Assembly (NCBI GenBank): GCA_037043015.1
Contig: CM073324.1
Span: 2,597,413-2,661,412 of the forward strand
Length of the DNA stretch: 64,000 nt
Source: Bryum argenteum
Taxonomy: Eukaryota; Streptophyta; Bryopsida; Bryales; Bryaceae
Direction of reading: 5' to 3'
In this document: positions 4,106-33,177 of the stretch, piece by piece
Layout: every line of letters begins with the position of its first letter
Numbering within the stretch: the stretch's first letter is position 1
The notes under the pieces: model-generated
What the model was told of the DNA's origin: nothing
Databases searched by the model: none
The model's input: the letters and a program-made list of their open reading frames with translations, nothing else
Position numbers and translations under genes: made by a program

Positions 4106-5716
4106 TCACAACCGTGGCAGGGGATTTTCTTCCTCCATTTCACCATCGCTGGCTATCTCCTCTAAATCAGTGGCTTCCACAAATTGGTCGACACCCACTG
4201 GAATATCTGAGAGGATGTCCCTAACCTCTTCTTCATCAGAGTAATTATCTTCTGCCCTGTCTTCGGCACGTACTGCAAATCTGTCCCCGTCGTCTTCATC
4301 ACTGTCCACTCCCTCTCCAGCTGAATCATCAGCTTCAATCGCCACTAGATCAACTAGATTGATATGCCGGGGAGGTGATTCGGTTGAAGGTCCGGTTGTA
4401 TCTTCCTCTGATGCTTCACTCCTCAGAGGATTCAGGGTTTCTGACAAGCTTGACCCCCCACTTAAGTTTGTCCTCTTATAGACAACTAAGTTTGACCGAG
4501 GATTATTTTTGATTGCTAACTTCCAACCTTGGTTAAGTGGATCATCCACATAAAACAGCTGCTTCACATCCTTAGGATAAATAAAAGGATCATCTTCTAT
4601 AGCAGAAGCTCTCAAAAACTCCCCGGCCTTAACACGATGAAATCCGCATTCATCTTCTAAAACCGTTGCATTCGACCCATGTTGGCGAATTACAGAATCC
4701 CAGAATTGGCATTTGAAAAGGATGGTTTCAAAGCTATCAAAGTTCAATCTAACAATAGTGTCAACATAGCCATAGAACTCTATTTGTTGACCTCCTACGT
4801 CGTATAGGGCTGACACACCACAATCAAATGTTGTTTTCTTTGTCATGTCTCTTTCCATTACCCGGAAATGGTTTCCATAAGCCCAACACATGGTGTAAAA
4901 TTGGGCTTTATCTCCTGGTCCCAATGCTACATCCAAAACCATTTGAGGGACTTCTTTGCCATTGATCTTGTCTTCACGAACAGCTCGTAATACCCAATCC
5001 TTCAAAGTAGGTTTTCTAGACATGCTTCCACATTCCACCTCGTACCGTTCTCTCCAACTCTCCAGAAATGGAGCGTTTAGTAACAAAAATCTATGGGCCT
5101 GTTCCCTAAATATTGAATCCATAGTAGTGAGGGGAGATACCTTTGGCAATACTATGCCATTTATTCGAGCATCCTCATCCGTTGGTTTTTGAAGACGAGA
5201 AGCATGCAGGTGCAATCTCTGAGTATACTCGTTAACATGGAACATGGATTCTGCACATATATAACCTTCTGCAATAGATCCCTCTGAGCGGGCCCTCTGT
5301 CGAACAAAGTCTTTCAAGACTTTTAGGTAGCGCTCTATGTGGTACATCCACCGAATGGATATAGGCCCTGCAAGTTCCACTTCCTCGACTATATGCAGTA
5401 TATTATGAAATTGGATGTCAAAAACTGACACGGGCAGGTGCATCTCCATTTCACATAATATTTCTGCGGCTTCTACTTTTATCTTTTCGCAATCTGAGAT
5501 TCTAATCTCCTTTGAACACACCCAACGAAATAAAGCTGCTAATCGGTAGATTATTTTTCGAATCTCTTCTGTTAGTGTGCCTCTCACTACTATGGGAAGT
5601 AAGTCATGTAACAAATTATGATAATCGTGGGTTTTGAACCCTACCAGTTTGCGATTGCTAAATTTATGGCGGAAACTTGACCCATACCCAAATGGAGTAC
5701 GGGTGTTCGATAACAA
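4106..5716 (-). CDS. tnp2 transposase C-terminal exon (DUF4218 + DUF4216)
   Basis: Open frame of 536 codons. Residues 20-200 match the DUF4218 pattern of plant CACTA transposases: NRKLVGFKTHDYHNLLHDLL, then PVSVFDIQFHNILHIVEEVE, GPISIRWMYHIERYLKVLK, and RARSEGSIAEGYICAESM. Later residues (about 310-410) match DUF4216: QIEFYGYVDTIVRLNFD, ILFKCQFWDS, and KQLFYVDDPLNQGWKLAIK. The tail is strongly acidic (about residues 440-530). The frame extends slightly upstream of the first Met-like codon to a stop near 5,749, inside the inserted segment, so the exon's natural 5' edge has been lost. This is the longest intact block of the transposase gene. Confidence 0.85.
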   Translation of the reverse strand: MLSNTRTPFGYGSSFRHKFSNRKLVGFKTHDYHNLLHDLLPIVVRGTLTEEIRKIIYRLAALFRWVCSKEIRISDCEKIKVEAAEILCEMEMHLPVSVFDIQFHNILHIVEEVELAGPISIRWMYHIERYLKVLKDFVRQRARSEGSIAEGYICAESMFHVNEYTQRLHLHASRLQKPTDEDARINGIVLPKVSPLTTMDSIFREQAHRFLLLNAPFLESWRERYEVECGSMSRKPTLKDWVLRAVREDKINGKEVPQMVLDVALGPGDKAQFYTMCWAYGNHFRVMERDMTKKTTFDCGVSALYDVGGQQIEFYGYVDTIVRLNFDSFETILFKCQFWDSVIRQHGSNATVLEDECGFHRVKAGEFLRASAIEDDPFIYPKDVKQLFYVDDPLNQGWKLAIKNNPRSNLVVYKRTNLSGGSSLSETLNPLRSEASEEDTTGPSTESPPRHINLVDLVAIEADDSAGEGVDSDEDDGDRFAVRAEDRAEDNYSDEEEVRDILSDIPVGVDQFVEATDLEEIASDGEMEEENPLPRL

Positions 5717-5740
5717 GTTAATGATGTTGTCATACTCTAG

Positions 5741-5899
5741 TAATAATTAAGTGAAGGAATGTTTTTTTTTTTTTTTTTGTTTTGTTTTTCTTGTTTTGTA
5801 TGCTAGTGTTAGTACAACGCTCAACTGATTGCAAAGTCCGACAGTAGTATTCGCTATGTTGTATCTCCAGCGTTTTTCTGTATGAGCGCTCCACAGGGT
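5741..5899. other. Filler insertion copied from two nearby inverted donors
   Basis: This segment interrupts the transposase exon just after the codons for LLDVMHIQ. Positions about 5,741-5,797 (TAATTAAGTGAAGGAATG, a T-run, then GTTTTGTTTTTCTTG) are an inverted copy of about 8,529-8,585, an intron of the same gene. Positions about 5,805-5,899 are an inverted, nearly exact copy of about 12,818-12,912. The two copied blocks abut. The tnp2 residues expected after DVMHIE are missing, so the insertion replaced sequence instead of merely adding to it. Synthesis-dependent repair with template switching fits; this is inference. Confidence 0.65.
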
Positions 5900-13128: not shown

Positions 13129-13136
13129 ACTATAGT
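13129..13136. repeat. hAT target-site duplication, left copy
   Basis: ACTATAGT directly precedes the left terminal inverted repeat and is identical to 26,967-26,974. Eight base pairs is the standard hAT duplication length. The word is its own reverse complement, so on sequence alone it could be read as part of a longer inverted repeat. Confidence 0.85.
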
Positions 13137-13156
13137 CAAGGTTGTCATACCGGGCG
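13137..13156 (+). repeat. hAT left terminal inverted repeat
   Basis: CAAGGTTGTCATACCGGGCG, 19/20 identical to the reverse complement of 26,947-26,966. It continues into GC-rich subterminal sequence with repeated CCGTCCGTCC words up to about 13,195; similar GGACGGACGG words occur near the right end. Confidence 0.9.
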
Positions 13157-13354
13157 GGCACCCCGCCCGCCCGTCCGTCCGCCTTGTCCGTCCGATAGAG
13201 CTCTCGCTCGCCCGATACGGTCAAACCTCTGTTGACTTTAATTTAGGTAAAAAAACGAGGACGTGGCAAGGGTTTGGGTAAAAACCAAGCCACTTGGCCG
13301 CCACGTATGCGCCACGTATGCGCCACGAGGTCGAGGACAGGCGGGTGAAAGGGG

Positions 13355-13475
13355 TTAGGGGGGGGGGGGGGGGGGGTGCGGGGGGGGGGGGGGCGGGCGG
13401 GGAGGGGGGCGGGGGGGGGGGGGGCGGGTGGGGGGGGGGAGGCCTGGGGCGGGAGAGGGGGGGGGGGGGGAGGCC
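13355..13475 (+). repeat. Poly-G-rich tract upstream of the kinase promoter
   Basis: Nearly pure G runs interrupted by single A, C or T. It lies about 60 bp upstream of the TATA box at 13,535. Glycine- or proline-rich reading frames across it on both strands are translation artefacts. Such tracts can form G-quadruplexes, which is inference. Confidence 0.85.
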
Positions 13476-13534
13476 GGGTTGGGCCCACCCTTCTTTTCCT
13501 TTACCACACTCCAAGTGCCTCCACTCCCCTCCCC

Positions 13535-13541
13535 TATAAAA
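13535..13541 (+). promoter_or_regulatory. TATA box of the kinase-like gene
   Basis: TATAAAA, about 140 bp upstream of the ATG at 13,677. The leader between them ends with GGAGGAG-TTTTC-T-run-ATGG, the same closing layout as the leaders at 16,326 and before 22,263. Confidence 0.65.
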
Positions 13542-13676
13542 GCCAAGTTGATTCATTCTTCACCTCACTCCACTAGTTGCCAAGCACTACTTCTTCATTG
13601 AGTTAGTGTGGGCACTTGGTGGGGTGTTTTTCAACACGAGGGAGGAGTTTTTCGCCGTTTTTTTCTCAGATTCGAA

Positions 13677-15333
13677 ATGGAGGGTGAAGGGAGCCAAGGT
13701 TCGAGTATGCGACATGGAAATCAAGATTTGGAAACCCCCCTTGACCGTCGTGAAGAAATAGAGGAAATTCCAAAGGAGACAGAATCTACAAACCCTTCTT
13801 CATCGGGATCACGGAAAAGAAAGGGAAAAAAGAAAAAAAGTAAAGGGTCAAAAAAGAACAATTCGATCTTGCTACAGGAGGAAGAGACACCACTTATGCC
13901 AACCGAGGAGTATCTCGAATTTGCTCGACGGAGTGGTATACATTTCTATGAAATACGAACTATGGCGATTTGCATAGGTCTTACCCTTGGGGCGAATGAG
14001 GAAGGATTTCACAATTTGTGTCACGATCTTCACCAATACCCGGAGCGTTGTTTTGAAAACAATTACAAACTTTGTGATTGGACCAACTTCTACGACCACG
14101 GTGCATGGTTGGACCTCGAGTGGTAGAATTGACTACCAACACCGTAGACGCATGGACGTATATTTCGGGAAGAAATTGATGACAAGAGCAAATGGACAAT
14201 TGAAGATGACGAACTAGTTCCAAAGCTAGATTTAGTGAAAAGTTTTGGTCAAACCTTTTCGAAAAGCTCGTGGGAAGAGGAATGAGAGATGGAAATTAAA
14301 AGCCGAGGATGTTCTTATGTCTCATTGCAACAGTGGAACTTTCAAGTGGCTAGAATCAACCGTTACCGTGGTATCTATGCCAGGACAACGTATCCAAGGT
14401 GGATATGGGAAGTTTACTAAGGTGGTGCTTACAAAACTTCAACATATTCCTAGTTGGATTCCATTCGCGCGTAAACAATTGACGAACGTGAAGAACGAGA
14501 GGGAGAAGCGGATGGCAATCGTAAATGAGGCGGGTGGATGTCCAGTAAAGCACCCTGGAATCATCAGACTATCGTACTTGCATCCTAAAACAATGGATGG
14601 ATTTTCGCTATGGTGGAACGGAGGTAGCTTCAAAGATTTTGACATCCATATCAATCAAAAAATCCCAAATCACTTGGAATACGACGACATTCCAAAAGAG
14701 CGAAACTCAGGGTTATCCGATAGACAACTACGTTGGGTTGTAACATTCCGTAAACGACGACTTGACTTGGCATTGTCGTTGCTTGTCATTGTGGAAAAGT
14801 GTCATGAACACAATTATCTCCACAACGACATTACTCCAACCAATGTTCTATTGCATTTCGATGATTGGAAACCAGATACGGTTTACATCGGGCTTTGTGA
14901 TTGGGGGATTTCAAGTCGAGTGGTGGAACAAGCGCCATCCAAGTATGGATTTGCGAAGCAAGAGAAGTTGGATGAAGAACGCAAATGGCGAAAATGGGTG
15001 GCACCGGAATTATGGTTTTTGTATGGTCCACGCGGTTCTGACAATCCCCTTGAGGTTATGGAATGCAAACACATATATTCCAAGGCAGCCGATGCATTCT
15101 CCGCCGGGTGGTTAGCGCAACACATTTGGCAAGAAGAGTACGATATGAAGTACTTTTTGCCACACCGCATAGACCGCGCCATGAATCACGAGTACCTCAC
15201 GTTCAAATTAAAAGGCCTCCAGGACCCAGATGTGTCCAAAAGGTTGACCGTGTCCGATGTTAAAGAGGCCTTGGAAAAGTATCCATTTAATTGGACCATG
15301 CCCATGTGTTGTTTCCGTACTTCAGCTATTTAG
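13677..15333 (+). pseudogene. Protein-kinase-like cargo gene, frameshifted
   Basis: The N-terminal part (13,677-14,126) is basic and serine-rich, followed by LEFARRSGIHFYEIRTMA. Coding signal then changes frame at least twice between about 14,100 and 14,250 (for example KSKWTIEDDELVPKLDLVKS lies in a third frame). The C-terminal ORF (14,245-15,333) carries the kinase signature: HNDITPTNVLL (H-x-D-x4-N catalytic loop, about 14,836), CDWG in place of DFG (about 14,895), KWVAPELWF (APE motif, about 15,000) and AADAFSAGW (D-x4-G). No glycine-rich loop or clear VAIK lysine was found, so the N-lobe is degenerate. It could be an inactive kinase fold. The role in the transposon is unknown. Confidence 0.72.
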
Positions 15334-15440
15334 TTTAGCGGTCCCCAAAGTTAGCGTGTGCCTATTGTATGTAGAAGGATTGCATGGATAATTACAATAC
15401 TATATGTACTTCCAATTGTGCACATACATATAATATACGC

Positions 15441-15590
15441 AGCAACTTCTCTTATTCGATGCATTTGTACATCTTCGTATGACATATTTAATTGCATTGT
15501 TTTGAGTTGGGTGCACATATTTATTGGTTCCATACCTTGCCAAATACCACTCAACCTATGCATGAATCGGTTTGTAAATACCACGAAAAA
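15441..15590 (+). repeat. 3' trailer shared with the hAT transposase module
   Basis: Sequence after the kinase-like stop contains TCTCTTATTCGATGCAT, GACATATTTAATT(G/A)CATTG, TGGGTGCACATATTTA and ACTCAACCTATGCATGAATC. The same words occur in the same order at about 26,159-26,332, after the transposase region, with an extra segment in that copy. It looks like a duplicated 3' untranslated region. Confidence 0.8.
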
Positions 15591-15673
15591 AAATATTTAG
15601 AAAATCAAAAAAATATTTTTTTAAAAATTAAACAAAAAGAAAAAAAAGTAAAAAATTAAAATAAAATAAAATA

Positions 15674-15955
15674 AAGAACGCCGCTAACCCCCTAATCCCC
15701 CCCTTACCCCTTAACCCCTATCCTAACCCCTCTACCTTGCCCCTACCCCCTCTACTCCCGCCCCTAACCTCCCCCCCCCCCTCCCCCGCCCCTAAAAATA
15801 TTTTAAAAATCTTTTTAAAAAAAAAAATTTAAAAAAATTAAAAAAAGAACCCCCCTTACCTCTCTAAAACCCCTCTAACCCCCAACCCCAACCCCTAACC
15901 CCCCAACCCCTAACCTCCCCCTTCCCCCCCCACGGCCCCCTCCCCCCCCCCCCCT

Positions 15956-15994
<39 letters not shown>

Positions 15995-16130
15995 CCTCCC
16001 CCCCCCCCCCCCCCCCCCCCCCCCTCCCCCCCCCCCCTCCCTCTCCCTCCCCCCTCCCTCCCTACCCCCCCCCCCCCCCCTCCCCCTCCCCCCCCCCCTC
16101 CTCCCCCCTTGCCCACCCCCTCTTCCCCGC
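15674..16130 (+). repeat. C-rich low-complexity tract
   Basis: The left part consists of irregular CCCCTAACC-type words broken by A/T-rich stretches, and the right part is almost pure C runs. It lies immediately upstream of the TATA box at 16,184. It resembles degenerate telomere-like sequence but has no regular CCCTAAA array. Long glycine-rich minus-strand frames here are artefacts. Confidence 0.85.
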
Positions 16131-16180
16131 CTTGGGGAATCCGCCCTGGCTTGGTGCTAGGGTCGGGTTGGGGGTCCAAC

Positions 16181-16325
16181 CACTATATAAGAGGCGGACT
16201 CCCCCATTGTAACCCGCCCTTTCTAGCTCTCAAGATCCACTTCTCTTTGTGAGGGTTGGATTGGGGATCGGGGAAGGGCGTTTGAGCACATTTGGAGGAG
16301 ATTTTCGAAATTTTTTTCTACAACG
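16181..16325 (+). promoter_or_regulatory. Promoter and leader of the RING gene
   Basis: TATATAA at 16,184-16,190 within CCACTATATAAG, then TGTAACCCGCCC (16,208-16,219), CTAGCTCTCAAGATCCACTT, a GGTTGGATTGGGGAT block, AAGGGCGTTT, GGAGGAG, a T-run and TCTACAACGATGGC. The same order and wording occur at about 22,115-22,266 before the transposase, so the two genes share a homologous promoter and leader. Confidence 0.75.
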
Positions 16326-18420
16326 ATGGCGACACCAGGTGCGATCCGCAAGGAAGAAAAAGACAAAGAACGAGTGCGACAAGGAAAACAGCAGCGGGCC
16401 CGTCTTCATGTGTTAAATAATCCGTTAAAATTGGCATTCAGAGGCTGGGAAGATGTAGCTGACCCATGGGATTTTGACCATGCAAAGCAATACATTGAGT
16501 GGTGCCACATCGACAAATCCTTCCAGCCTGAACGCCATGTTTTACACTTGAGAAGCAACAAGGCCAATTTGCGCTACTGCACCAACCCGGAGTTCCTTTC
16601 CCGATGTCTTCAAATTTACCAACTCCTTTACACCACGAAGTTACCAAACAAGAACCAGGTCGGGTTATATTTAGTGCGCGGCGTTCATGTGGAGATCATT
16701 TTAAAGAAGAGGTTCGATTGGTCTCTTTTGTGAAGGGTTTAGAAGGCAAGGCTCGAGCACCACGAGTACAAAATGGTTTCCCTGGCTTTGGAACTTGGGC
16801 AGTAGAGGATCCTGGGTGGTTTCCCACAGCCGACAGACCTACGGAAATAGACCCCCATAACCATATGTCTGACTCCCCGCTTGATTCCGACTCCGATGGC
16901 TCCCACGAGATAGTTTTACCTCGACGCAAAACGATGGAAAGGAATAAGCGAAAGAGGCTAGCTCGATCATTAGAGCCTATGCCCATGGCTTCATTGGCCC
17001 AAGTAAGACAACCGGTTCCGGTGCAGCTACTTCCCAACATAGTAGATGTGGAGATGGTTCATGCAGTTGGGGGAAACATTGAACCCCAAGAAGTGGAGGT
17101 TGTTGTGGTGGGGGGCGTGCGGATGAAATTCCACCGGTAGATTTGTCTGTCGAGATGGAGCATTTTGATACAAGAGAAGGCCGATTCAAGCAATTGATGG
17201 CGTAAAATCAACACTTGAAGGAAGAGAATCAACGGCTAAAAGAGGACATGCGGAGAGCTAGCGACGAAATCTCATCCAAGCAAAGACGTATCATGGAGCT
17301 TGAGGGGGCCATGGCAAAAGGGAAGGGGGCTTCTACATCACAAACACGACCTAGTACATTAACTAGTCCGAACGGATTGGTCATAGGAAGTGTGCTTGAC
17401 TCCTTGGCATTCGATAATGCAGATTTCAACGAAGGATTAGGCTCGCCTGCAACACCCCTTGAAGTTGATTTGGTAGATGTTCGACCAGATAATGAGGTAT
17501 TAGGCTTGTCTGCAACACCCCTTGAAGTTGATTTGGTAGATGTTCGACGAGATAATGAGGTCTTGAAGAGTCGAATGAATCAGATGGCTGAGCAATACTA
17601 CCAGTGGAAGTTGACATGCATTTTATCCGTCGCGCAAGGGTGACCAAATAGTCGAGGAGTTGAGGAAGATCGATAGGACATGGAAGGATCATAACCAAGA
17701 GCGGGTATTTGGTTTGACATCATGGGCAATTGTAGATGAGATGTTTCCGGACGAATTGCCAAAAAAACCGGATGGAACAATTGACTGGGCCCAGTGCGAG
17801 TGGGATTTTGAAAACACGATGGACATCAAGAAAGCAGCCAAATTGTGGCCAACACCAGCAACGTTCGTGACGGATGGTGAAAATTGTGCGATGTGTTGCA
17901 ACCCATTTGGACCTGAAGGAGGATTTTGCGTAGGCACTTGCCGCCACGTGTTTCATCCGATTTGCCCGATTGGCTTCATGGTTGTTCGACGACGATGTCC
18001 GCTATGTAAATCTCCCTTCCACGAGCGCTTGTACAATCTTTTTGGATTAGAGGATTACATGCCACCGCATTGGGAGTATAATGAAACCAATGCCCCTAAA
18101 CACAAAGGGAAATGGGGAGAAGACTTGGTATGGAGTTGAAATTGTCTCTAACTTCTATAGAGAAGCGAGTTGGCCGCCACGGAATTCGGGCCGGGAAAGG
18201 GATCCGGAGGCAATTACGAGGGCCCCGCCATCATTTAATTCCATCAAATGTCTCAAATGCCAATGGCAAGCGAAACTTCTTCTACCAGGTTTACAACGGG
18301 TATTGGGACAAAGCGCACAAGGAGTTTCGATTTGGGATTCATCCGAGAAGGGCTAAAATGGAAGTCCGATGGAATGATGTATTAAATCGGAAGAGCGTTC
18401 CGACCGCGATTCTGAGATGA
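16326..18420 (+). pseudogene. RING-H2 cargo gene, frameshifted
   Basis: The ATG lies in the conserved TACAACGATGGC leader end. Coding signal moves through at least four frames: 16,326-16,733 (basic N-terminus, then RGWEDVADPWDFDHAKQYIE), 16,604-17,140 (acidic DSDSDG and basic RRKTMERNKRKRLA), 17,215-17,643 (coiled-coil-like MKEENQRLKEDMRRA plus a duplicated 21-residue unit), and 17,660-18,139 (RING). The RING (about 17,885-18,012) reads C-AM-C, FCVGTCRHVFHPIC, then RRRCPLC, giving a C-x2-C...C-x-H-x2-H-x2-C...C-x2-C pattern typical of RING-H2 ubiquitin ligases. A further frame ends at 18,420 with HKEFRFGIHPRR. Ligase activity is not shown and substrates are unknown. Confidence 0.68.
17437..17562 (+). 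repeat. In-frame 63-bp tandem duplication in the RING gene
   Basis: Positions 17,437-17,499 and 17,500-17,562 are near-identical and encode LGxxATPLEVDLVDVRxDNEV twice. The unit length is a multiple of three, so the frame is kept. Confidence 0.9.
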
Positions 18421-18950
18421 ATTGGGCAACGGATGAATCCGATCGTGGGCGAGACCTTTTACACCACCGAAGCATTGATTTTACGATGGAACAACATAGT
18501 CCCCAAACCGGACGCATGCTTCGAGCCATGCAACAATCGCAATTCCGAGGGATATTCTTGAAGAAGACGGGCCTGCGAGGAGGACTCGATCGTTGATTCG
18601 TAGACTTCGATTGGGGGTGAAGATTTGCGGAGGGTACGAATGATGCCGACGCCCGGCCCAAGCAAAGGCAAAGAATGGACGAGAACTAATTGTCGATTTT
18701 CTAATGTAGCAACCAAGATATACTTCTCTTTTTCTATATCGTTAAACACTCTTTTGAAATACATATGCTTTTCTTTTGCAAACTTGTTGGCACACTCTAT
18801 GCATGTGTTTATAATCATATGATCATGTGAATGCTAATTATCATGGTGTCATTGTATGGTTAGCTTGATAAATAGTTAAGTGGGAGAAAAAAATTATTTT
18901 AAATCTTGTAATAATTAATAAATTTCTTATAAACATGATAGGACAATAAA
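18421..18950 (+). other. RING gene 3' region
   Basis: Further coding-like remnants occur to about 18,680, after which the sequence becomes AT-rich with no gene supported. The satellite array starts just downstream. Confidence 0.35.
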
Positions 18951-19140
18951 AAAACAAACATACCGATAGCGGATGTCAATCCAAAGTGAGGGGGAGAGGG
19001 GAAGTGAGGAGGGTGGGTTAGGGGGGTGGGTAAGGGGGTGGAGAGGGGAGGAGAAAAGAAGAAAGGGAGGAGTGGGGAGGGAAGAGGAGAGAAGGGGAGG
19101 AAGTGGAAGAGGAGTGGAATGATGGTCAATCCAATCATTG

Positions 19141-19211
19141 AAATCCAAACATTCCCTCACTATATCCGGGATACTCCAAATCCCGGCTTTAATGAGGGAA
19201 TGTTTGGATTT
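19141..19211. repeat. Satellite hairpin copy 1
   Basis: The arm beginning AAATCCAAACATTCCCTCA and ending ATCCGGGA pairs with TCCCGG...TGAGGGAATGTTTGGATTT across a short loop (TACTCCAAA). The stem is about 31 bp with few mismatches. Confidence 0.88.
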
Positions 19212-19735
19212 GTTTATCCCATTAATGATGCTTGTTTGCAAAACACAAGATTGGTGAGAGAGAAGGCAAATTTTTTTCAAAAAAACTACGTGGGGTGGGT
19301 GAGAGAGGAGGGGGCGGGTTACGGGAGGGGCGGATTACGGGGGGAGGTGCGGGTACCATGGGGGTAGGGCGGGTACCATGGGGGTAGGGCGGGTACCAAG
19401 GGGGGTAGGGCGGGTACCATGGGGGTAGGGCGGGTACCAAGGGGGGTAGGGCGGGTACCAAGGGGGGGTAGGACGGAGATGGTAAGGGGAATGAGGGAGT
19501 GAGTGTGAGGGTGGTGAGGATGAGGGGGTGGGGTGGGGGGGGGGTGGGGTGAGGGGGGGGTGGTGTGAGGGGGGGGGGTGAGGATGAGGGGGCGGGTGAG
19601 GATGAGGGGGCGGGTGAGGATGAGGGGGCGGGTGAGGGGGGAGGAGAAAAGAAGAAAGGGAGGAGTGGGGAGGGGAAGAGGAGAGAAGGGGAGGAAGTGG
19701 AAGAGGAGTGGAATGATGGTCAATCCAATCATTGG

Positions 19736-19806
19736 AAATCCAAACATTCCCTCACTATATCCGGGATACTCCAAATCCCGGCTTTAATGAGGGAATGTTT
19801 GGATTT
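19736..19806. repeat. Satellite hairpin copy 2
   Basis: Same inverted repeat as copy 1, 595 bp downstream, with both arms and the loop conserved. Confidence 0.88.
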
Positions 19807-20322
19807 GTTTATCCCATTAATGATGCTTGTTTGCAAAACACAAGATTGGTGAGAGAGAAGGCAAATTTTTTTCAAAAAACTACGTGGGGTGGGTGAGAGA
19901 GGAGGGGGCGGGTTACGGGGAGGGGCGGATTACGGGGGGGAGGTGCGGGTACCATGGGGGTAGGGCGGGTACCATGGGGGTAGGGCGGGTACCAAGGGGG
20001 GGTAGGGCGGGTACCATGGGGGTAGGGCGGGTACCAGGGGGGGTAGGGCGGGTACAAGGGGGGGTAGGACGGAGATGGTAAGGGGAATGAGGGAGTGAGT
20101 GTGTGTGGGGTGAGGATGAGGGGGTGGGGTGGGGTGAGGGGGGGTGGGGTGGGGGGGTGGTGTGAGGGGGGTGAGGATGAGGGGGCGGGTGAGGATGGGG
20201 CGGGTGAGGATGATGGGGCGGGTGAGGGGGAGGAGAAAAGAAGAAAGGGAGGAGTGGGGAGGGAAGAGGAGAGAAGGGGAGGAAGTGGAAGAGGAGTGGA
20301 ATGATGGTCAATCCAATCATTG

Positions 20323-20392
20323 AAATCCAAACATTCCTCACTATATCCAGGATACTCCAAATCCCGGCTTTAATGAGGGAATGTTTGGATTT
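20323..20392. repeat. Satellite hairpin copy 3
   Basis: Same inverted repeat, 587 bp after copy 2, with one C missing in the left arm (ATTCCTCA) and ATCCAGGA in place of ATCCGGGA. Confidence 0.86.
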
Positions 20393-20886
20393 GTTTATCC
20401 CATTAATGATGCTTGTTTGCAAAACACAAGATTGGTGAGAGAAAAGGCAAATTTTTTCAAAAAACTACGTGGGGTGGGTGAGAGAGGAGGGGCGGGTTAC
20501 GAGGGGAGGGGGGACACGGGGGAGGTGCGGGTACCATGGGGGGGGTAGGGGGGTACCATGAGGGGTAGGGCGGGTACCGAGGGGGGTAGGGCGGAGATGG
20601 TAAGGGGAATGGGGAGTGAGTGTGAGGGGGTGAGGATGAGGGGGTGGGGTGAGGGGGGTGGGGTGAGGGGGGGTGGGGTGAGGGGGGGGGTGGGGTGAGG
20701 GGGGTGGGGTGAGGGGGTGGGGTGAGGGGGTGGAGTGAGGGGGGTGGGGTGAGGGGGTGGGATGGGGTGAGGGGGTGGTGGGGTGAGGGGGTGGTGTGAG
20801 GGGGGTGAGGATGCGGGGGGTGAGGATGAGGGGGGTGAGGGGAAAGAAGAGGAGGGAAGGGAAGGCATACTCAATACAATCGTAGA

Positions 20887-20956
20887 AAAGTCAAACATTC
20901 CCCCCACTATATCCGGGAAAGTCCAAATCCGGGCTTTAGTGAGGAATGTTTGGACT
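20887..20956. repeat. Satellite hairpin copy 4, diverged
   Basis: Diverged copy 564 bp after copy 3. The outer arms changed together: AAGTCAAACATTCC on the left pairs with GGAATGTTTGGACTT on the right, whereas earlier copies have AAATCCAAAC/GTTTGGATTT. Pairing of the stem is largely kept despite substitutions. Confidence 0.75.
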
Positions 20957-21163
20957 TCATTACTTTAAAAATACCCGGTAGGTGGAAGAAGGAGCCAAGG
21001 GGGGATCCAAGGAAAGAGAGAAATGAAGTTTCCGTATTTCCTCTCTTATTCAAGATTGCCCCACTACAAACCAATTCCCCCCTCTATTTCAAAGTCGAGC
21101 TACCACGTCCCAATAAAAATGATATTCTTAAAATGTGTGCTATTTTTCTCCAATCCCACCTTC

Positions 21164-21574
21164 TATTATGTTTAATTCATTCTTCTTCCCAATGCTATAT
21201 TACAAATAAATTTATCATCCTAATGGTTTAATCATATATTTGATTTTACGATCACAATTTATATTAGGACTAAAGAATGTACTGGTGGGTGGTATTATGT
21301 TTAATTCATTCTTCTTCCCAATACTATATTACAAATAAATTTATCATCCTAATGGTTTAATTATATATTTGATTTTACGATCACAATTTATATTAGGACT
21401 AAAGAATGTACTGGTGGGTGGTATTATGTTTATTTCATTCTTCTTCCCAATTCTATATTACAAATAAATTTATCATCCTAATGGTTTAATCATATATTTG
21501 ATTTTACGATCACAATTTATATTAGGACTAAAGAATGTACTGGTGGGTGGTATTATGTTTAATTCATTCTTCTT
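21164..21574 (+). repeat. Tandem repeat, 3 x 129 bp plus partial
   Basis: Units beginning TATTATGTTT(A/T)(A/T)TTCATTC start at 21,164, 21,293, 21,422 and 21,551, exactly 129 bp apart. Only a few substitutions separate the copies, so the expansion is recent. The AT-rich unit contains TTTATCATCCTAATGGTTTA and ACTAAAGAATGTACTGGTGG. It lies upstream of the transposase promoter. Confidence 0.95.
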
Positions 21575-21639
21575 CAAATAACATTTTATTTAAAAAAATT
21601 AAAAAAATTTAAACAACATTTAAAAAACGCAGCACGTGT

Positions 21640-22062
21640 CCTTACTCCCTCTCCTATCCCACCTCCCACCTCCCACCCCCTTTCCCCCTCCCCTTCCCCC
21701 CTTTCCCCTCTCCCCCTACCCCCCCATTATCCCTCCCTCTACCCCCCCTTATCCCTCCCTCTACCCCCCCTATCCCTCCCTCTACCCCCCCCCTATCCCT
21801 CCCTCTACCCCCCCTCTATCCCTCCCCCTACCCCCCCTATAACCTATCCATCCCCCTACCCCCTACCCCCCCCTTTCCCCTACCCCCCTACCCCCCCCTA
21901 CCCCTTATCCCTCCCTCTACCCTCCTTCTACCCCCCTATCCCTCCCTCTACCCCCCTCCCCCCTCACCGCCCCCCTCACCGGCCCCCCCCCCCCCCTTCC
22001 CCCCGCCCCCCCTTCCCCCCCCCTCCCCCCCCCCTTCCCCGCCCCGTAACCCGCCCCTACGG
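21640..22062 (+). repeat. C/T-rich tract upstream of the transposase promoter
   Basis: Minisatellite of CCCTATCCCTCCCTCTACC-like words grading into C runs, ending about 55 bp before the TATA box at 22,119. Its placement matches the tracts before the kinase and RING genes. Confidence 0.88.
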
Positions 22063-22110
22063 CCCTACCCCCATTGAAATCCCCATCTTCCCATCCATGT
22101 ACCATGGAGT

Positions 22111-22266
22111 ACAACCACTATATAAGGGGCGAACTTCTCATTTGTAACCCGCCCCTCCTAGCTCTCAAGATCCACTTCTCTTCGTGAGGGTTGGATTGGG
22201 GATTGGGAAGGGCGTTTCAAAGACATTGGGAGGAGGTTTTCAATTTTTTTTTTTCTACAACGATGG
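22111..22266 (+). promoter_or_regulatory. Promoter and leader of the hAT transposase
   Basis: TATATAA at 22,119-22,125 in ACCACTATATAAGG, followed by TGTAACCCGCCC (22,143-22,154), CTAGCTCTCAAGATCCACTT, GGTTGGATTGGGGATTGGG, AAGGGCGTTT, GGAGGAGG, a T-run and TCTACAACGATGGC. The ATG at 22,263 is followed by nine more codons and a stop (TAA at 22,293). A GGAG|GTAATG donor nearby and a TTTAG acceptor before 22,390 suggest a 5' intron, but the phases do not join cleanly in this copy. Confidence 0.72.
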
Positions 22267-22401
22267 CAACCGGCGCTAGGCGGCAATGGAGGTAATGTCA
22301 AAATTGGTTCAGGCAAGAGAATAGAGCAAAGAATTATTAAGAGGGTTTACATGATATACCAAATTGGCCACTAGAACCTTCATCCTTTAGGCTCGAATGC
22401 G

Positions 22402-24437
22402 ATGGGAAGCCAACGGAGGACAACAAGAGAGTGGAATTCGTGGTATGAATTTCATGATGATGGGAACATTACTTGTGTTTTTTGCAACACAACATTCACC
22501 TACAAACGAATTCGAGCATTCATGCACCTAGGCTACATGCCGAAATCCGAGAAGAGTGTGTGTTCCCTTGTACCGCATCGTGTTCGCAGCAGGTTTGCAA
22601 ATTGTGGGGGCATAGTTCCCGCCAGAATGAGTGATGAAGACATGTACGGTGGAGATTCTACTACACATGGTGCCTCCAACGGAATTCCTAGTGGTTCTTC
22701 ATGCCATGTAGGTGTTGATACAAACACAGGGGTTGGAGTGAGGGGTGGAAGTCCTCACAGAGGAGGCCGGGATGCGTGCGTGGTAGAGGGACGTGAGAAT
22801 CCACACTCCATGTCAGCTACCCGAGGCGCATCAAATTCTACGAGGTCCGTAGCAGTACGCCAACGTAGCATGGAGGAATCTTTGAACACCGCGAAGAGAA
22901 GAGAATTGGATGAAAAGTGGGCAAATTGTTTCTATAACGCAAATATCCCATTCAACGTGGCCAGGAACCCGTTTTTTATTGAAGCGGTTTTAGCAACTTC
23001 CAAGGCGAGGTTTGACTATGTTCCTCCATCTTATCACCAATTCAGGACTAATCTCATAGAACCCAAGCAGTTGCGTAGTCGAGAAGGAGATTGAGTCAAG
23101 AACTGGATTTGCAAAATCCGCGTATGGGGTGTCCATATGCACCGATGGTTGGGACGATGTTAATCGTAGGCCCCTCATGAATGTGATGATGACGTGCCCA
23201 CCTGGAGATGTATTTCTAGGAAGCATTGACACCACTGGGCAGACAAAATCTGCGACGTATATAGCAAACAAACTCAAAGTATTCATTGAGAAGGTGGGAC
23301 CTAAGAATGTGACTGCAGTGTGTACGGATAACGCTGCAAACATGCTTGGAGCAATGAAATGTATCATCGAGGAGTATCCATGGATTTTCTCGCAAGGATG
23401 CATGGCTCATGCTTTGGATCTCCTATTGGAAGATTGGGCAAAAATCGACATCTTCAAGGACCTTATCGAGAGGGCAAGAAAGTTGTGCCATTATATTAGG
23501 AACCATCATGCAACAATGGCAACATTTCGTGAATTGAGTCCTAAACTCTCAATCCTGGTGCCGGGGGAGACGCGCTTTGCATGCAATATGTTGATGATGG
23601 ACCGACTCGTCAAACTCAAGCCCGTCCTAGAGGCCACTGAAAGACCATCCCCGAGTTCAGAACTATACCAATACCTTGAGGGACAGGATGGGAGGGGAGC
23701 GGGCAGCCACCGCCTGGCGCAATATCGTGCGCACCATTGAAGATGGGGCCTTCTGGCAGCGGTGCAAGAATTTCATTTACATGACGCAGGAGGTTTTGAA
23801 AGCATTATGCGTGTTTGATGGCCGAGAACCCGCAATGGGTAAGGCATGGCTCATACTACAAGGATTGCATCAACATGTGACTTCATTCAGGGATCCACCA
23901 TTTAGCGTCCAACCAGATATTGCAACAATATTGGAGGATTCATTCAAAGCGAGGAGGGCCATGTGTTTTACGGATCTTCACTACGCAGCTGCCCTCTTGA
24001 ATCCATATCTCAAGGAGAATGCAGCGCTAAAGCAAGATGGCGTAGCCCTCCGTGCGCTATATCGTGTAATTCAGAAATTAAAAGACGTGGTGGGTGTGAA
24101 GTATGAAGACGTCATATCCGAATTACAAGAGTATGACGAAGGTACAGGGCCATATAGCCCCGACATTGCCTTCGACATCCGTGCAATGAACATGCTCCCC
24201 CATCAATGGTGGTATAGGATTGGAGATCAGTACCTTTCCAAAATAGCGGTACGCATATTGTCTCTCACATGTTCAGCTAGTTCATGTGAGCGTAATTGGA
24301 GTGCTTACTCATTTGTGCACAATAAGAGCCGAAATCGGTTAGGCCCGAGAAAAGCGAGAGACATTAGTGTATATCTATACCAATGGCCGTGTATTACGAG
24401 AAAAAGACCAGGGCCCGAACCACTTCATTTGGTATGA
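22402..24437 (+). pseudogene. hAT transposase with BED zinc finger, frameshifted
   Basis: Frame 1 (22,402-23,094) has a BED-type finger, CVFCNTTFTYKRIRAFMHLG, and a basic linker. Frame 2 (about 23,075-23,690) has the catalytic region: SICTDGWDDVNRRPLMNVM with the first Asp, VCTDNAANMLGA with the second, GCMAHALDLLLEDW and PGETRFACNMLMMDRL. Frame 3 (about 23,676-24,400) has insertion and C-terminal parts, ending in the hAT dimerisation block LTCSASSCERNWSAYSFVHN followed by KSRNRLGP. Single-base shifts near 23,075 and 23,685 break the ORF. An intact relative would bind the CAAGGTTGTCAT termini and catalyse cut-and-paste movement. The family call is secure. Confidence 0.88.
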
Positions 24438-25891
24438 AGACAATGCCAACTCGGAGGATTGCACCCGGATGCCCTCGGCCCGATTCGGTAGATGAGCCCA
24501 ACCGAGAGTTCCTAGAAGAAGAGGACGATAGTGACATGGAAGCCAATTGGGAAGGTAGAGAGTACCGACAAAATCCAGATCTCTGGGCTGAAGGTGCGGA
24601 CCTTCTAGGGGAGAGTAGGGAATATTACGGTGAAGACGATGCAATGGACGATGACCAAGAGCCAATCCGTTGGGGTCTTTGGAGCATGGAGTACAAGTCC
24701 TACTCGTCGCATTCCATCGCCAGACAATCGCCCTAATGTCGGCATCAATCAAGCGCGGATTACAGTATTGGATTCGGAAAACGAAGATTCAGATCATGGG
24801 CTAGATCGTGAAGCAAATCAAACCATACCCGCTCATGATGTTAACTACAACCACCCCTCTTTCGGAAACAATGAGGATAATGAGCAGAACGAGGGAGAAG
24901 ATGGCACAATTGGTACTATTGGAACTCCCAATACCTATACAACAATTGTGGATCGTTTTGAAGATGTGGCCCCGCGAGAAGTGGGAAATAGCCCAAATGC
25001 ATCAAGATTGGGAGGGATTGGGAGAACTATTACACCCGTTGTTGCGCCCCAATGTCTTGATCCGAATATCGATAGGATTCACGATGCATTCGAATTCACC
25101 GATGATGTTGACCCTATGCACGCGGATATTCCGGTCGCGACAGATCTACGGGCTAAATACACCTACACCAAATACTAGTGGAGGAGCAACAAATGCTAGT
25201 GGAAGAGCTTCCCAATCTGATGGGTCCCGTGGGAGGCCTCCTATTATCCCTATGCCAGCTATCCATCATCCAATGGGACAATACCACCAAGCACGTGGAA
25301 GAAACGGAGCTAGAGGACGTGGGGGAACTAACACTCCTAGCGGAAACATAGACCGCGGAGGGTTTGGAGGCTCAACATCCACTACAAAATGGATACGGCC
25401 TAGAGGCATTGTAGACACTGTAGATGGAGGGGGACAGAATGTTGGCGATGTCTTGTCTTCCAGGCCAAGCAGACGTTGTTCATTAGGAATAGGGGGGAGG
25501 AACCCAAACACGGTAATTGAACCATTCGTGGACACATATGTTCCTGGTCGCACTTCATCAACACCAGCTTTTGTTGTTCCTAGAGGACCGCCGGTGAATT
25601 CGGATGGGGAGTGTCCCAGAGCAAAGAGACACAAGGTTATTAGACTTGATGAAAATCTATACAAAAAAAATAGCCCTTCTTCGCAATGAGTCTACTTGTT
25701 CTTCAAGTGGTAGCGGAGCGACAATGATATTGAACGTGGCAACAACGACGACGGCGAGCGATGATGGTGACCCACGATGCGATGAGGCGCCCGATGATGA
25801 TGACGTTGTTTTCCAAGACCTTATCCGAGATCCCAACATGGAGGGTACATCCACTAAAAAGGTGCGGCGATCAAATCGTTTTAATAAGTAG
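24438..25891 (+). pseudogene. Transposase 3' extension, acidic then RGG-rich
   Basis: Coding-like sequence continues after the dimerisation block but moves between frames. There is an acidic part (FLEEEDDSDMEANWEG, 24,500-24,700), a low-complexity part (SENEDSDHG, NNEDNEQNEGEDG), an RGG-like part (GRNGARGRGGTNTPSG, about 25,290-25,350), and a basic end (KKVRRSNRFNK, stop at 25,889-25,891). No known domain is present. It could be the C-terminus of the transposase or a separate small ORF. Confidence 0.5.
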
Positions 25892-26158
25892 AACGGACTT
25901 ATATTATCTATTTGGGTATTTTAGAACTTCTCATCATTATTGTAGTCCTTTATTAGACACTATTATTAGTCTATTATAGTGCATAAGTTTATTGAAAAAA
26001 AAAAAAAATAGAGAAGTTGATTATGTGTTGTGAGAATATATATAATTTCCTTATATCTACGTTGTATCGTTATTCACTATGAATTATATTATATCATATT
26101 ATTATTCATGCTTTCTACTTTTTACTACATTACATTCGCCTTATGTATGAAAAATAAG

Positions 26159-26340
26159 GCAATTTCTCTTATTCGATGCATGTGTACTTAGTCCTATGAC
26201 ATATTTAATTACATTGTTTTGATTTGGGTGCACATATTTACTTATTCCCACCCCTCCTCACTCTTCCAACCGCTCATATGCATACCTTGCCTAATACCAC
26301 TCAACCTATGCATGAATCAATTTGTAAATACTACGATATT
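26159..26340 (+). repeat. 3' trailer, second copy
   Basis: Ordered match to 15,441-15,590 (TCTCTTATTCGATGCAT, GACATATTTAATTACATTG, GGGTGCACATATTTA, ACTCAACCTATGCATGAATC), with about 30 bp inserted before CATACCTTGCC. It lies after the transposase region, as the other copy lies after the kinase-like gene. Confidence 0.8.
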
Positions 26341-26402
26341 TCTATTTAAAAAAATTCTCGAAAGAAAAATTCAAGAAAAAATTTAAAAAAAAATAAATGA
26401 AA

Positions 26403-26690
26403 ACGCATCAACCCCCTTACTCCCCCTTACCCCTCCCCCTAACCCACCTTACCCCCTTACCCCCTAACCCCCTTACCCCCCTTTACCCCCCTAACCCCCT
26501 TACCCCCCCCCCCCCTCCCCCCCTACCCCCTCCCCCCGCCCTACCCCCCCTCCCCGCCCTACCCCCTCCCCCCCCTACCCCCCCCCCCCCCCCCCCCCCC
26601 TCCCCGCCCTACCCCCTCCCCGCCCCCTACCCCCCCCCCCCCCCCCCCCCCCCCCCTACCCCCCCCCGCCCCCTCCCGCCCCGCCGCCAC
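26403..26690 (+). repeat. C-rich tract near the hAT right end
   Basis: CCCCTTACCCC-type words grade into C runs. It is followed by AATGTAACCCGCCCC at 26,692-26,706, sharing TGTAACCCGCCC with the two leaders, so the right end seems to keep a remnant of the same promoter module without a gene behind it. Confidence 0.8.
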
Positions 26691-26705
26691 CAATGTAACC
26701 CGCCC

Positions 26706-26781
26706 CTCAAAAGTTCACCCGCCCTCTCGAAAGTTCACTCGCCCTAACAAAAGTTCACTCGCCATGGTACGATTTCACCCG
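26706..26781 (+). repeat. Subterminal repeats, 4 x about 20 bp
   Basis: AAAGTTCAC(C/T)CGCC occurs three times with spacing of about 20 bp, followed by a diverged fourth (CGATTTCACCCGCCC). The array lies about 190 bp inside the right terminus. Short subterminal repeats are common transposase-binding sites in hAT elements; a binding role here is inference. Confidence 0.7.
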
Positions 26782-26946
26782 CCCCGACGCCACGATGGAC
26801 TTACACGTCACATCCTACGTGGCTTTTTACTGCAAAGTTTCTTACCCATGAAAAAATTACACGCCCCCTTCAAACAAGGTGGGCGGGCACGCCCGTCCGT
26901 CCGGGACAACTCGTACGTCCGTTTTGTCCGCCCGATTGCCTCAACA

Positions 26947-26966
26947 CGCCCGATATGACAACCTTG
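26947..26966 (-). repeat. hAT right terminal inverted repeat
   Basis: On the minus strand it reads CAAGGTTGTCATATCGGGCG, 19/20 identical to 13,137-13,156. Inward of it lie GGGCGGACAAAACGGACG and CCGGACGGACGGGCG words, resembling the left subterminal region. Confidence 0.9.
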
Positions 26967-26974
26967 ACTATAGT
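26967..26974. repeat. hAT target-site duplication, right copy
   Basis: ACTATAGT, identical to 13,129-13,136. Confidence 0.85.
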
Positions 26975-32579: not shown

Positions 32580-32738
32580 GTAGAACGGGGCGTAGTTCAT
32601 ACTACACCCTAACGTAGTAAACTTTTTAACTACGCTCCGACGTAGAAAAAGCTACGATATTTTGAGGCCAGTTTCGTAAATTCCTAGAGTATAAAGCTAC
32701 GTTTTTGCCGTAGCTCACAGTGTATTGTTTTAGTAGTG
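32580..32738 (-). repeat. CACTA right terminus and subterminal repeats
   Basis: The terminus reads CACTACTAAAACAATACACT on the minus strand, starting at 32,738. Inward, CTACG and CGTAG words cluster (GCTACGTTTTTGCCGTAGC, GACGTAGAAAAAGCTACG, ACTACGCTCCGACGTAG), forming alternating inverted motifs typical of CACTA subterminal regions that bind the element's DNA-binding protein. TAG follows at 32,739-32,741. Confidence 0.75.
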
Positions 32739-32741
32739 TAG

Positions 32742-33177
32742 AAGCGGTACTATTTTACTACTCAATAATGCTCCGATTGCGTGGCTAAGCCGAAAACAAA
32801 CTTGTACGGCTACATCGACAACGGAAGCCGAATACATCGCAGCTTCTCTCACATCGAAGGAGATAGTCTGGGTTCGGAGACTATTACAGGAGATTGGTTA
32901 TCCCCAGGTGATGCCAACACCTCTTCTATCAGACAATCAATCTGCCATCAGACTTGTGCAGAATCCTGAATTCCACAGGCGTACCAAGCATATTGATATA
33001 ATGTATCACCTCATCCGTGAATTCCAATCTAAGAAAGAGATTGAGGTACTATACGTCCCAAGCCTTCTTCAACTGGCTGATATTATGACGAAGCCGCTTA
33101 CACCTGACATTTTTACCAAGCTCAGAGACGCACTCAACATCGTCAAGAAAGATCATCGGCAAGTGGGAGCAAAATAA
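32742..33177 (+). pseudogene. Ty1/Copia polyprotein C-terminus (RNase H)
   Basis: Reads LLNNAPIAWLSRKQT, then TATSTTEAEYIAASLTSKEI, WVRRLLQEIGYPQ, LLSDNQSAIRLVQNPEFHRR, TKHIDIMYHLIREFQ and LQLADIMTKPLTPDIFTKL, stopping at 33,175-33,177. These are the standard Copia RNase H blocks (S-x-x-EAEY, D-N-x-S-A, RTKHID, and the xADxxTKPL ending). The upstream part of the polyprotein is missing because the CACTA terminus abuts the RNase H sequence. The element is therefore dead. Confidence 0.92.

What the first reader, a model, noticed from the sequence alone, without database searches (positions are those of the whole stretch)
13129..26974. A 13.8-kb hAT element with exact ends and multi-gene cargo
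Seen: terminal repeats CAAGGTTGTCATAYCGGGCG (19/20), perfect ACTATAGT flanks, and a hAT transposase inside. The element also contains a kinase-like gene, a RING-H2 gene and a hairpin satellite. Plant hAT elements are normally short and carry only the transposase (sometimes captured gene scraps). A hAT with its own set of promoter-bearing accessory genes would be a new large DNA transposon type.
Basis: partly seen in the sequence, partly recalled or inferred. Interest (0 to 1): 0.88.

Follow-up and report, generated by a model that had tools for sequence, protein, structure and literature searches.

The report
Multi-gene hAT transposon with kinase and RING
This stretch is a real 13.8-kb jumping gene that carries, besides its own mobility enzyme, a protein kinase and a RING-type protein, and the same gene set recurs in many related jumping elements of the same genome, so the extra genes look like part of the element and not chance passengers.

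Summary
Confirmed and extended. Window 13137-26966 is a complete hAT element (13,830 bp; 20-bp TIRs, 8-bp duplication ACTATAGT). 21 of 23 copies read at both ends have duplications matching in at least 7 of 8 bases, nearly all different. Shorter derivatives (2.8-10.8 kb, ~340 bp) share the ends. A divergent subfamily (transposase ~50%, RING ~45%, kinase ~36% identical) keeps the three genes, kinase inverted, in an element of 19.8 kb read end to end. The RING protein begins with an undescribed conserved domain ('GWE') that recurs in other genes of these elements and beside a third transposase subfamily. Kinase motifs are conserved; median dN/dS is 0.29 (RING), 0.44 (transposase), 0.71 (kinase). 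Motif arrays lie between genes and near the ends. I read the accessory proteins as element-encoded helpers, most likely against host silencing (VANC-like); that function is inferred. The window copy itself is broken in its genes. New variant of a known kind.

The parts
13129..13136 (.). 8-bp target site duplication, left copy (ACTATAGT)
13137..13156 (+). left terminal inverted repeat (kinase side)
   Evidence: the 120-bp left end is identical in 18 listed places of the genome, this one included
13357..13478 (.). G-rich subterminal array, upstream of the kinase gene
13534..13542 (+). TATA-like box CTATAAAAG before the kinase gene
13677..15333 (+). kinase gene, split into two ORFs here (13602-14126, 14239-15333); one 566-aa ORF in the C8 copy
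15442..16073 (.). kinase 3' module with start of the C-rich array; 64% identical to the transposase 3' module at 26159-26706
15868..16134 (.). C-rich array
16183..16191 (+). TATA-like box CTATATAAG of the RING gene; array, promoter and leader 15871-16393 are 72% identical to 21801-22328 before the transposase
16326..18600 (+). GWE-coiled-coil-RING gene (end approximate; several ORFs here, one 748-aa ORF spanning GWE and RING in the C3 copy)
16326..16730 (+). N-terminal GWE domain (no Pfam or PDB match)
17882..18010 (+). RING-H2-like finger
   Evidence: residues 90-132 of ORF 17615-18136; below Pfam's cut-off
18986..20962 (.). hairpin satellite, units of about 590 bp
21164..21575 (.). 129-bp tandem repeat, 3.2 copies (more in the C10 copy)
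21675..22072 (.). C-rich array
22118..22126 (+). TATA-like box CTATATAAG of the transposase gene
22402..25891 (+). hAT transposase gene (several ORFs here; one 1164-aa ORF in the C10 copy)
23120..23482 (+). DUF659 domain
24189..24356 (+). hAT C-terminal dimerisation domain
26411..26682 (.). C-rich subterminal array
26947..26966 (-). right terminal inverted repeat (transposase side)
   Evidence: the 120-bp right end is identical in 13 listed places of the genome, this one included
26967..26974 (.). 8-bp target site duplication, right copy (ACTATAGT)

Best explanation
A cut-and-paste hAT transposon of a lineage that encodes, besides the DUF659/hATC transposase, a conserved set of accessory proteins: a protein kinase and a GWE-coiled-coil-RING protein (further GWE proteins in sister subfamilies). 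SHOWN: the set lies between the same ends, has moved as a unit to many places with 8-bp duplications, and goes with the transposase across subfamilies. INFERRED: each gene has its own TATA promoter next to element-specific repeat arrays; the transposase binds the ends and moves the element; the GWE protein binds the arrays and, through RING-dependent ubiquitylation and the kinase, modifies host silencing factors (or the transposase) so that the element stays expressed. Short derivatives with the same ends move in trans.
For: Ends, duplications, order. Gene association against random placement: RING-transposase 36 of 62 close RING rows (random mean 1.3), RING-kinase 50 of 62 (random mean 2.3); far subfamily RING-transposase 26 of 82 (random 4.0), RING-kinase 11 of 82 (random 0.55); 15 of 17 far kinases beside a far GWE/RING gene. 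Complete far element of 19.8 kb with its own TIRs and duplication; 9 of 10 further far copies with duplications. Kinase catalytic motifs invariant at 31-36% identity (roles of the residues recalled). dN/dS medians: RING 0.29, transposase 0.44, kinase 0.71. Motif GCGACCG/CGGTCGC in the far element: 58 copies, 0 in ORFs that make up 51% of it. VANC proteins of VANDAL elements are anti-silencing proteins whose targets often form tandem repeats that vary between related elements (PMC5735166 abstract).
Against: No expression, methylation or binding data, so the anti-silencing step is by analogy only. Kinase constraint among close copies is weak (median 0.71, range 0.37-1.24); transposase pairs range up to 1.37; the copies compared are the best hits, so the less decayed ones. 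The RING match is below Pfam's cut-off. Many rows lack a partner: 26 of 62 close RING rows, and 17 of 53 close transposase rows, have no listed transposase or RING within 20 kb; 26 of 76 close kinase rows have no listed RING; 56 of 82 far RING rows have no listed transposase (lists are capped and many copies broken). 2 of 20 close copies and 1 of 10 far copies tested showed no duplication. The GWE domain has no known relative, so DNA binding is a guess. GC-rich arrays might be slippage products without function.
Confidence: 0.78

Rival explanations
1. The accessory proteins belong to the transposition machinery itself: the GWE protein helps to bind the ends and arrays, and the kinase and RING set transposase activity or level (as TnpA/TnpD or MURA/MURB divide the work in other plant elements; recalled).
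For: Arrays are subterminal as well as intergenic in both subfamilies; a GWE gene accompanies transposases of three subfamilies.
Against: Other hAT elements need only the transposase (established knowledge, recalled); no kinase or RING gene was looked for around the third subfamily beyond the 14 kb read at C2, where none was evident by eye.
Confidence: 0.35
2. Pack-hAT type gene capture: the kinase and RING genes are passengers picked up from the host.
For: Plant elements do capture genes (PMC13317346 passages); kinase dN/dS is fairly high.
Against: The same genes occur in a subfamily with about 50% identical transposase and inverted kinase; RING median dN/dS 0.29; kinase motifs kept. I picked out no host donor, but did not examine each hit, and the lists are capped.
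Confidence: 0.05
3. Composite or nested elements: the ends belong to two elements, or the kinase-RING block is a separate nested element.
For: The middle holds repeated satellite sequence.
Against: 9 of 27 paired copies plus C8 hold all three genes between the same ends, and each of these ten has an exact 8-bp duplication; a far element shows the same.
Confidence: 0.02
4. The extra genes are cargo that benefits the host, as in fungal Starships.
For: Some ends are recent (18 identical left ends).
Against: The ten full copies hold the same three genes, not varied cargo; genes are broken in many copies including this one.
Confidence: 0.04

Closest known systems
Plant hAT elements with DUF659/hATC transposase (Ac/Tam3-like)
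   Same: 8-bp duplications, short TIRs beginning CA, DUF659 and Dimer_Tnp_hAT domains, short derivatives with the same ends
   Different: Three times the length of maize Ac (4.6 kb, listing abstract of PMC3260210); conserved kinase, RING and GWE genes
ToxhAT, 14.3-kb fungal hAT-like element (PMC6737239, passages)
   Same: Similar size, hAT-like transposase, several further genes
   Different: 74-bp TIRs, no TSDs found by its authors, eight genes including ToxA; here 20-bp TIRs, TSDs in 21 of 23 copies and a set kept between subfamilies
Fungal TET+ hAT7 and IS3EU elements (PMC12730594, passages)
   Same: DNA transposons with conserved accessory genes; TET+ IS3EU families carry an alpha-kinase gene as well as the transposase
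   Different: hAT7 makes 7-bp duplications and carries a TET/JBP dioxygenase; the kinase there is an alpha-kinase, reported in IS3EU and not in hAT in the passages seen
VANDAL MULEs with VANC, and KIU (Kaonashi) genes with a Ulp1 domain (PMC5735166 abstract; PMC13317346 passages)
   Same: Plant multi-gene elements; accessory protein against silencing; target motifs in non-coding regions, often in tandem repeats; an accessory gene with a Ulp1 protease domain
   Different: Mutator-like transposase, non-TIR; no kinase or RING mentioned in the passages seen
Starship giant transposons (listing abstracts)
   Same: Large multi-gene eukaryotic elements
   Different: Tyrosine recombinase, fungal, variable cargo

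Membership tests
hAT superfamily | 8-bp target site duplication | tested here: met
   window, C10 and C8 copies exact; 18 of 20 further copies with at least 7 of 8; far subfamily C1:4647573 exact, 9 of 10 further far copies with at least 7 of 8 (ends allowed to slide)
hAT superfamily | transposase with DUF659 and hAT C-terminal dimerisation domain | tested here: met
   DUF659 121.9 bits (cut-off 34.7), Dimer_Tnp_hAT 29 bits (cut-off 21.4) in the 1164-aa C10 ORF; also in the 921-aa far ORF
hAT superfamily | short TIRs beginning CA(G/A) (feature recalled) | tested here: met
   CAAGGTTGTC in all 20 close copies read, CAGGGTTGTC at most far ends read
hAT superfamily | catalytic D, D, E residues | tested here: inconclusive
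   Candidate D, D and E motifs are visible in the ORFs, but the assignment is recalled; Hermes hits in the PDB were weak (E 0.2-0.3)
Fungal TET+ hAT7 | 7-bp duplications and a TET/JBP gene | tested here: not met
   8-bp duplications; no such domain in the 20 protein entries scanned
ToxhAT | 74-bp TIRs | tested here: not met
   the TIRs of the window element diverge after 20 bp (sequence printed)
VANDAL (MULE) | Mutator-type transposase | tested here: not met
   among transposase domains only hAT-type ones were found in the 20 entries scanned
VANDAL (MULE) | accessory protein that removes methylation | not testable with these tools
   needs methylome and expression data
Starship | captain tyrosine recombinase | tested here: not met
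   no such domain in the 20 entries scanned
Protein kinase superfamily | Gly loop, Lys, catalytic Asp, Asn, DxG, APE (roles recalled) | tested here: met
   all invariant in the 4-row alignment, two close and two far sequences; HND replaces HRD and DWG replaces DFG; Pkinase above cut-off
RING E3 ligase | RING zinc-ligand pattern | tested here: inconclusive
   zf-RING_2 25.4 bits against cut-off 27.3; best PDB hit RING finger protein 24, E 0.002

The most novel reading that the evidence does not exclude
A hAT clade (in what is probably a plant) that carries its own phosphorylation and ubiquitylation machinery: a new GWE protein domain reads element-specific repeat arrays beside the genes and at both ends and recruits RING and kinase activity to shut off host silencing, an anti-silencing system evolved independently of VANC.
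Probability: 0.33. Interest if true: 0.9.

Novelty: new variant of a known kind. Interest (0 to 1): 0.74.

Why it matters
hAT elements are usually thought of as minimal: ends plus one transposase. Here is a lineage, with at least 150 listed transposase places over its subfamilies and with ends still identical between places, in which a kinase, a RING protein and a new domain family go with the transposase across deep divergence. That makes it testable whether DNA transposons encode enzymes that act on host chromatin or ubiquitin pathways, and would offer a second, independent case beside VANDAL/VANC of tandem arrays evolving with an element-encoded protein. It also warns that 'host' kinase and RING gene families annotated in such genomes may be transposon genes.

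Tried and rejected
Ends belonging to two elements: rejected. Recent host-gene capture: not favoured, though capped hit lists, not examined hit by hit, cannot exclude a host donor. Viral origin of kinase or GWE: 0 relatives confirmed in viral contigs (45 and 37 pattern matches, none confirmed); the weak poxvirus-kinase Pfam hit (E 0.013 and 0.011) is below cut-off, and the best PDB hit, VRK1 (E 3.9e-6), covers only about 60 residues. A profile of the kinase alignment found nothing in the PDB at 1e-6. Rfam: 0 matches in the window. An AT-rich stretch 18870-18954 resembling the far element looked like low complexity on inspection and was dropped. The first literature search was too broad to help; two searches returned 0 papers.

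Limits. Genome lists are capped: at most 150 protein candidates (112 for the kinase) or 40 DNA candidates were scored per call. In one search I entered 150 of 152 transposase matches (the tool listed no more), 144 of 150 RING rows and 93 of 120 kinase rows; the 6 and 27 rows left out were further fragments of copies already entered. Its random control took contig lengths from the highest hit, except for C1. In one search, 46 of 150 rows were entered; two more rows of at least 80% identity (C2:27510465, C6:13515184) were missed, neither near a listed transposase, so 14 of 48. For the far-kinase test there, 41 of 150 rows were entered, three of them chosen because they lie near kinases, and no random control was made. 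dN/dS used the best-scoring copies, with and without stops, stop codons skipped; pairs are not independent. The TSD search allowed both ends to slide by some bases.
Full report
WHAT WAS CLAIMED AND CHECKED. The window holds a 13,830-bp element, 13137-26966, with 20-bp terminal inverted repeats (19 of 20 identical) and a perfect ACTATAGT duplication. Pfam finds a protein kinase domain, a RING finger below cut-off, DUF659 and the hAT dimerisation domain inside. The window lies at C4:2597413-2661412 of an unnamed 258.8-Mb assembly of 25 contigs; the TIR pattern, with up to 3 mismatches, occurs 506 and 515 times on the two strands against 7 and 5 for a reversed control.

OTHER COPIES. Two copies were read across their whole length. 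C10:15913634-15926427 has duplication GTCTCCGG, with main aligned blocks 92-97% identical; C8:7483301-7496444 has duplication GTAATCGT, main blocks 86-92%. Both have TIRs that match the pattern exactly. The 120-bp left end gave 40 scored places, 18 of them identical over all 120 bp; the right end 40 places, 13 identical. 27 of 40 left ends pair with a right end in the same orientation within 25 kb; 9 of the 27, the window included, hold kinase, RING and transposase hits, all on the element's strand, 12.8-15.6 kb long; one more holds kinase and RING, one kinase only; the other 16, 2.8-10.8 kb long, hold none of the listed hits. I read the 50 bases at both ends of 20 of these 27: 17 have 8 of 8 matching flanks, one 7 of 8, two none (2 and 3 of 8). 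With the window, C10 and C8 that is 21 of 23. The duplications all differ, but those of C4:125845 (CGCACGCA/CGTACGCA) and C4:351047 (CGTACGCA) are nearly the same and share a TIR variant, so these two may be one insertion that was duplicated with its flanks. Of the 100 exact TIR places listed (all on C1), 19 neighbouring pairs face each other within 20 kb, 12 of them spanning 320-373 bp: a MITE-like class.

THE GENE SET IS OLD. Genome searches with the transposase, RING and kinase proteins show a close set (at least 55% identical) and a far set. Close set: 36 of 62 RING rows have a transposase within 20 kb, all 36 downstream on the same strand; 50 of 62 have a kinase within 20 kb, all upstream, 45 on the same strand. 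The 5 kinases on the other strand belong to copies 69-80% identical, an intermediate group. Random placement gives means of 1.3 and 2.3. Against this, 26 of 76 close kinase rows and 17 of 53 close transposase rows have no listed RING within 20 kb, as expected from capped lists and broken copies but not proved to be so. Far set (transposase about 50%, RING about 45%, kinase about 36% identical): 26 of 82 RING rows have a transposase within 20 kb, 24 of them on the same strand and downstream, mostly about 12 kb away; 11 of 82 have a kinase, all 11 upstream and on the other strand (random means 4.0 and 0.55). 15 of 17 far kinases lie beside a far GWE/RING gene.

A FAR ELEMENT. C1:4647573-4667388, 19,816 bp, was read end to end. 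It has duplication ACTTATAT on both sides and TIRs CAGGGTTGTCTTATTAGACA and CGGGGGTTCTCTTATTAGACA, imperfect at the kinase side. Its ORFs are: kinase 513 aa (minus), RING gene in two ORFs of 334 and 590 aa (plus), a 472-aa GWE protein (minus), a 281-aa ORF that looks like coiled coil by eye (plus), a 250-aa GWE ORF (plus), transposase 921 aa (plus). With its 120-bp ends, 13 of 40 left ends pair within 30 kb, five of them at 17.7-20.9 kb; only this one of the 13 holds listed hits of all three genes, one holds RING and transposase, one kinase and RING. Of ten further copies read at both ends, 9 have at least 7 of 8 matching flanks. The two subfamilies share the TIR core CARGGTTGTC.

THE GWE DOMAIN. 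The RING gene starts with a domain of about 135 aa that also begins two other genes of the far element, and a gene beside a third transposase subfamily (C2:22030325). Seven sequences, two pairs of them near-identical, share 14 invariant columns, including A37, G40-W41, H61-I62, H71, H74, C85, R93 and W132. It has no match in Pfam (0 of 7 members), in the PDB or in viral contigs. The third-subfamily GWE gene lies near a listed transposase in 14 of 46 rows entered, 13 of them on opposite strands, mostly 5.1-5.3 kb apart (random mean 2.1).

SIGNS OF FUNCTION. Kinase motifs for catalysis (glycine loop, AxK, HND, N, DWG, APE; roles recalled) are invariant in four sequences, two per subfamily, at 31-36% identity between subfamilies. 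Median dN/dS: RING 0.29 (10 copies), transposase 0.44 (30 copies; pairs up to 1.37), kinase 0.71 (10 copies; 0.37-1.24), so kinase constraint among these copies is weak. The RING and transposase genes share array, TATA-like box and leader (72% over 541 columns), and the kinase and transposase genes share a 3' module (64% over 668 columns); TATA-like boxes lie at 13534, 16183 and 22118. In the far element the motif GCGACCG/CGGTCGC occurs 58 times, never in the six ORF spans that make up 51% of it; it lies in both end regions and in all intervals between these ORFs except that between RING and the 472-aa gene. The motif was chosen after seeing the tandem repeats, so its count is descriptive. In the window element 442 of 459 C5/G5 starts lie outside the gene spans, though this may reflect base composition.

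MECHANISM. Shown: co-mobility, conserved content and order, and identical ends that point to recent movement. Inferred from the hAT family: cut-and-paste transposition by the transposase. Inferred by analogy with VANDAL/VANC, whose targets often form tandem repeats that vary between related elements (PMC5735166, abstract): the GWE-RING protein and kinase act on the arrays and on host silencing factors. I give that functional step about 0.4, and about 0.35 to a role in transposition itself; the anatomical claim I hold at about 0.97.

KNOWN OR NOT. Ten searches of the open-licence library showed no description of such an element in the rows listed, which for the broader searches are only the top of the hits; Repbase and subscription journals were not searched. 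Nearest kinds are ToxhAT (passages), fungal TET+ hAT7 and IS3EU with alpha-kinase (passages), and VANDAL with VANC/KIU (abstract; passages). Two reviews, of giant eukaryotic transposons (PMC6431247) and of plant gene capture (PMC13317346), hold 0 whole-word occurrences of 'hAT' in their main text.

HOST. Not named. An AP2-like stretch and an INTS3-like gene (my reading of the ORFs, recalled, not searched) suggest a plant; the count and sizes of the large contigs would suit a moss, which is a guess.

Noticed in passing
C4:2583031-2596935, ending 477 bases before the window start: A second complete element of the same family (13,905 bp, duplication ATCTCGGC) in the opposite orientation, about 13.6 kb from the window's element.
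   Followed up: partly
contig C1 (44.1 Mb, 17% of the assembly): Holds 103 of 150 transposase, 104 of 144 RING and 65 of 93 kinase rows but 0 of the 18 identical left ends: old copies may pile up there, as on a non-recombining (sex?) chromosome, unless the capped lists are biased.
   Followed up: no
genome-wide, e.g. C1:9982196, C1:17830436, C1:31497662: A further GWE group, about 66% identical to the third-subfamily domain, fills about 100 of the 150 rows, some in open frames over 1000 aa; perhaps a fourth subfamily.
   Followed up: no
window 18986-20962: The ~590-bp satellite units hold a hairpin of about 70 nt (19-bp stem plus 7-bp inner stem in two of the three folded); exact-string matches suggest one such unit in the C10 copy and two in C8.
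   Followed up: partly
window 4109-5746 (-): A 546-aa ORF that looks like an En/Spm-type transposase-associated protein (by eye, not searched).
   Followed up: no
window 32737-33174 (+): ORF resembling the end of a Ty1/copia polyprotein (by eye, not searched).
   Followed up: no
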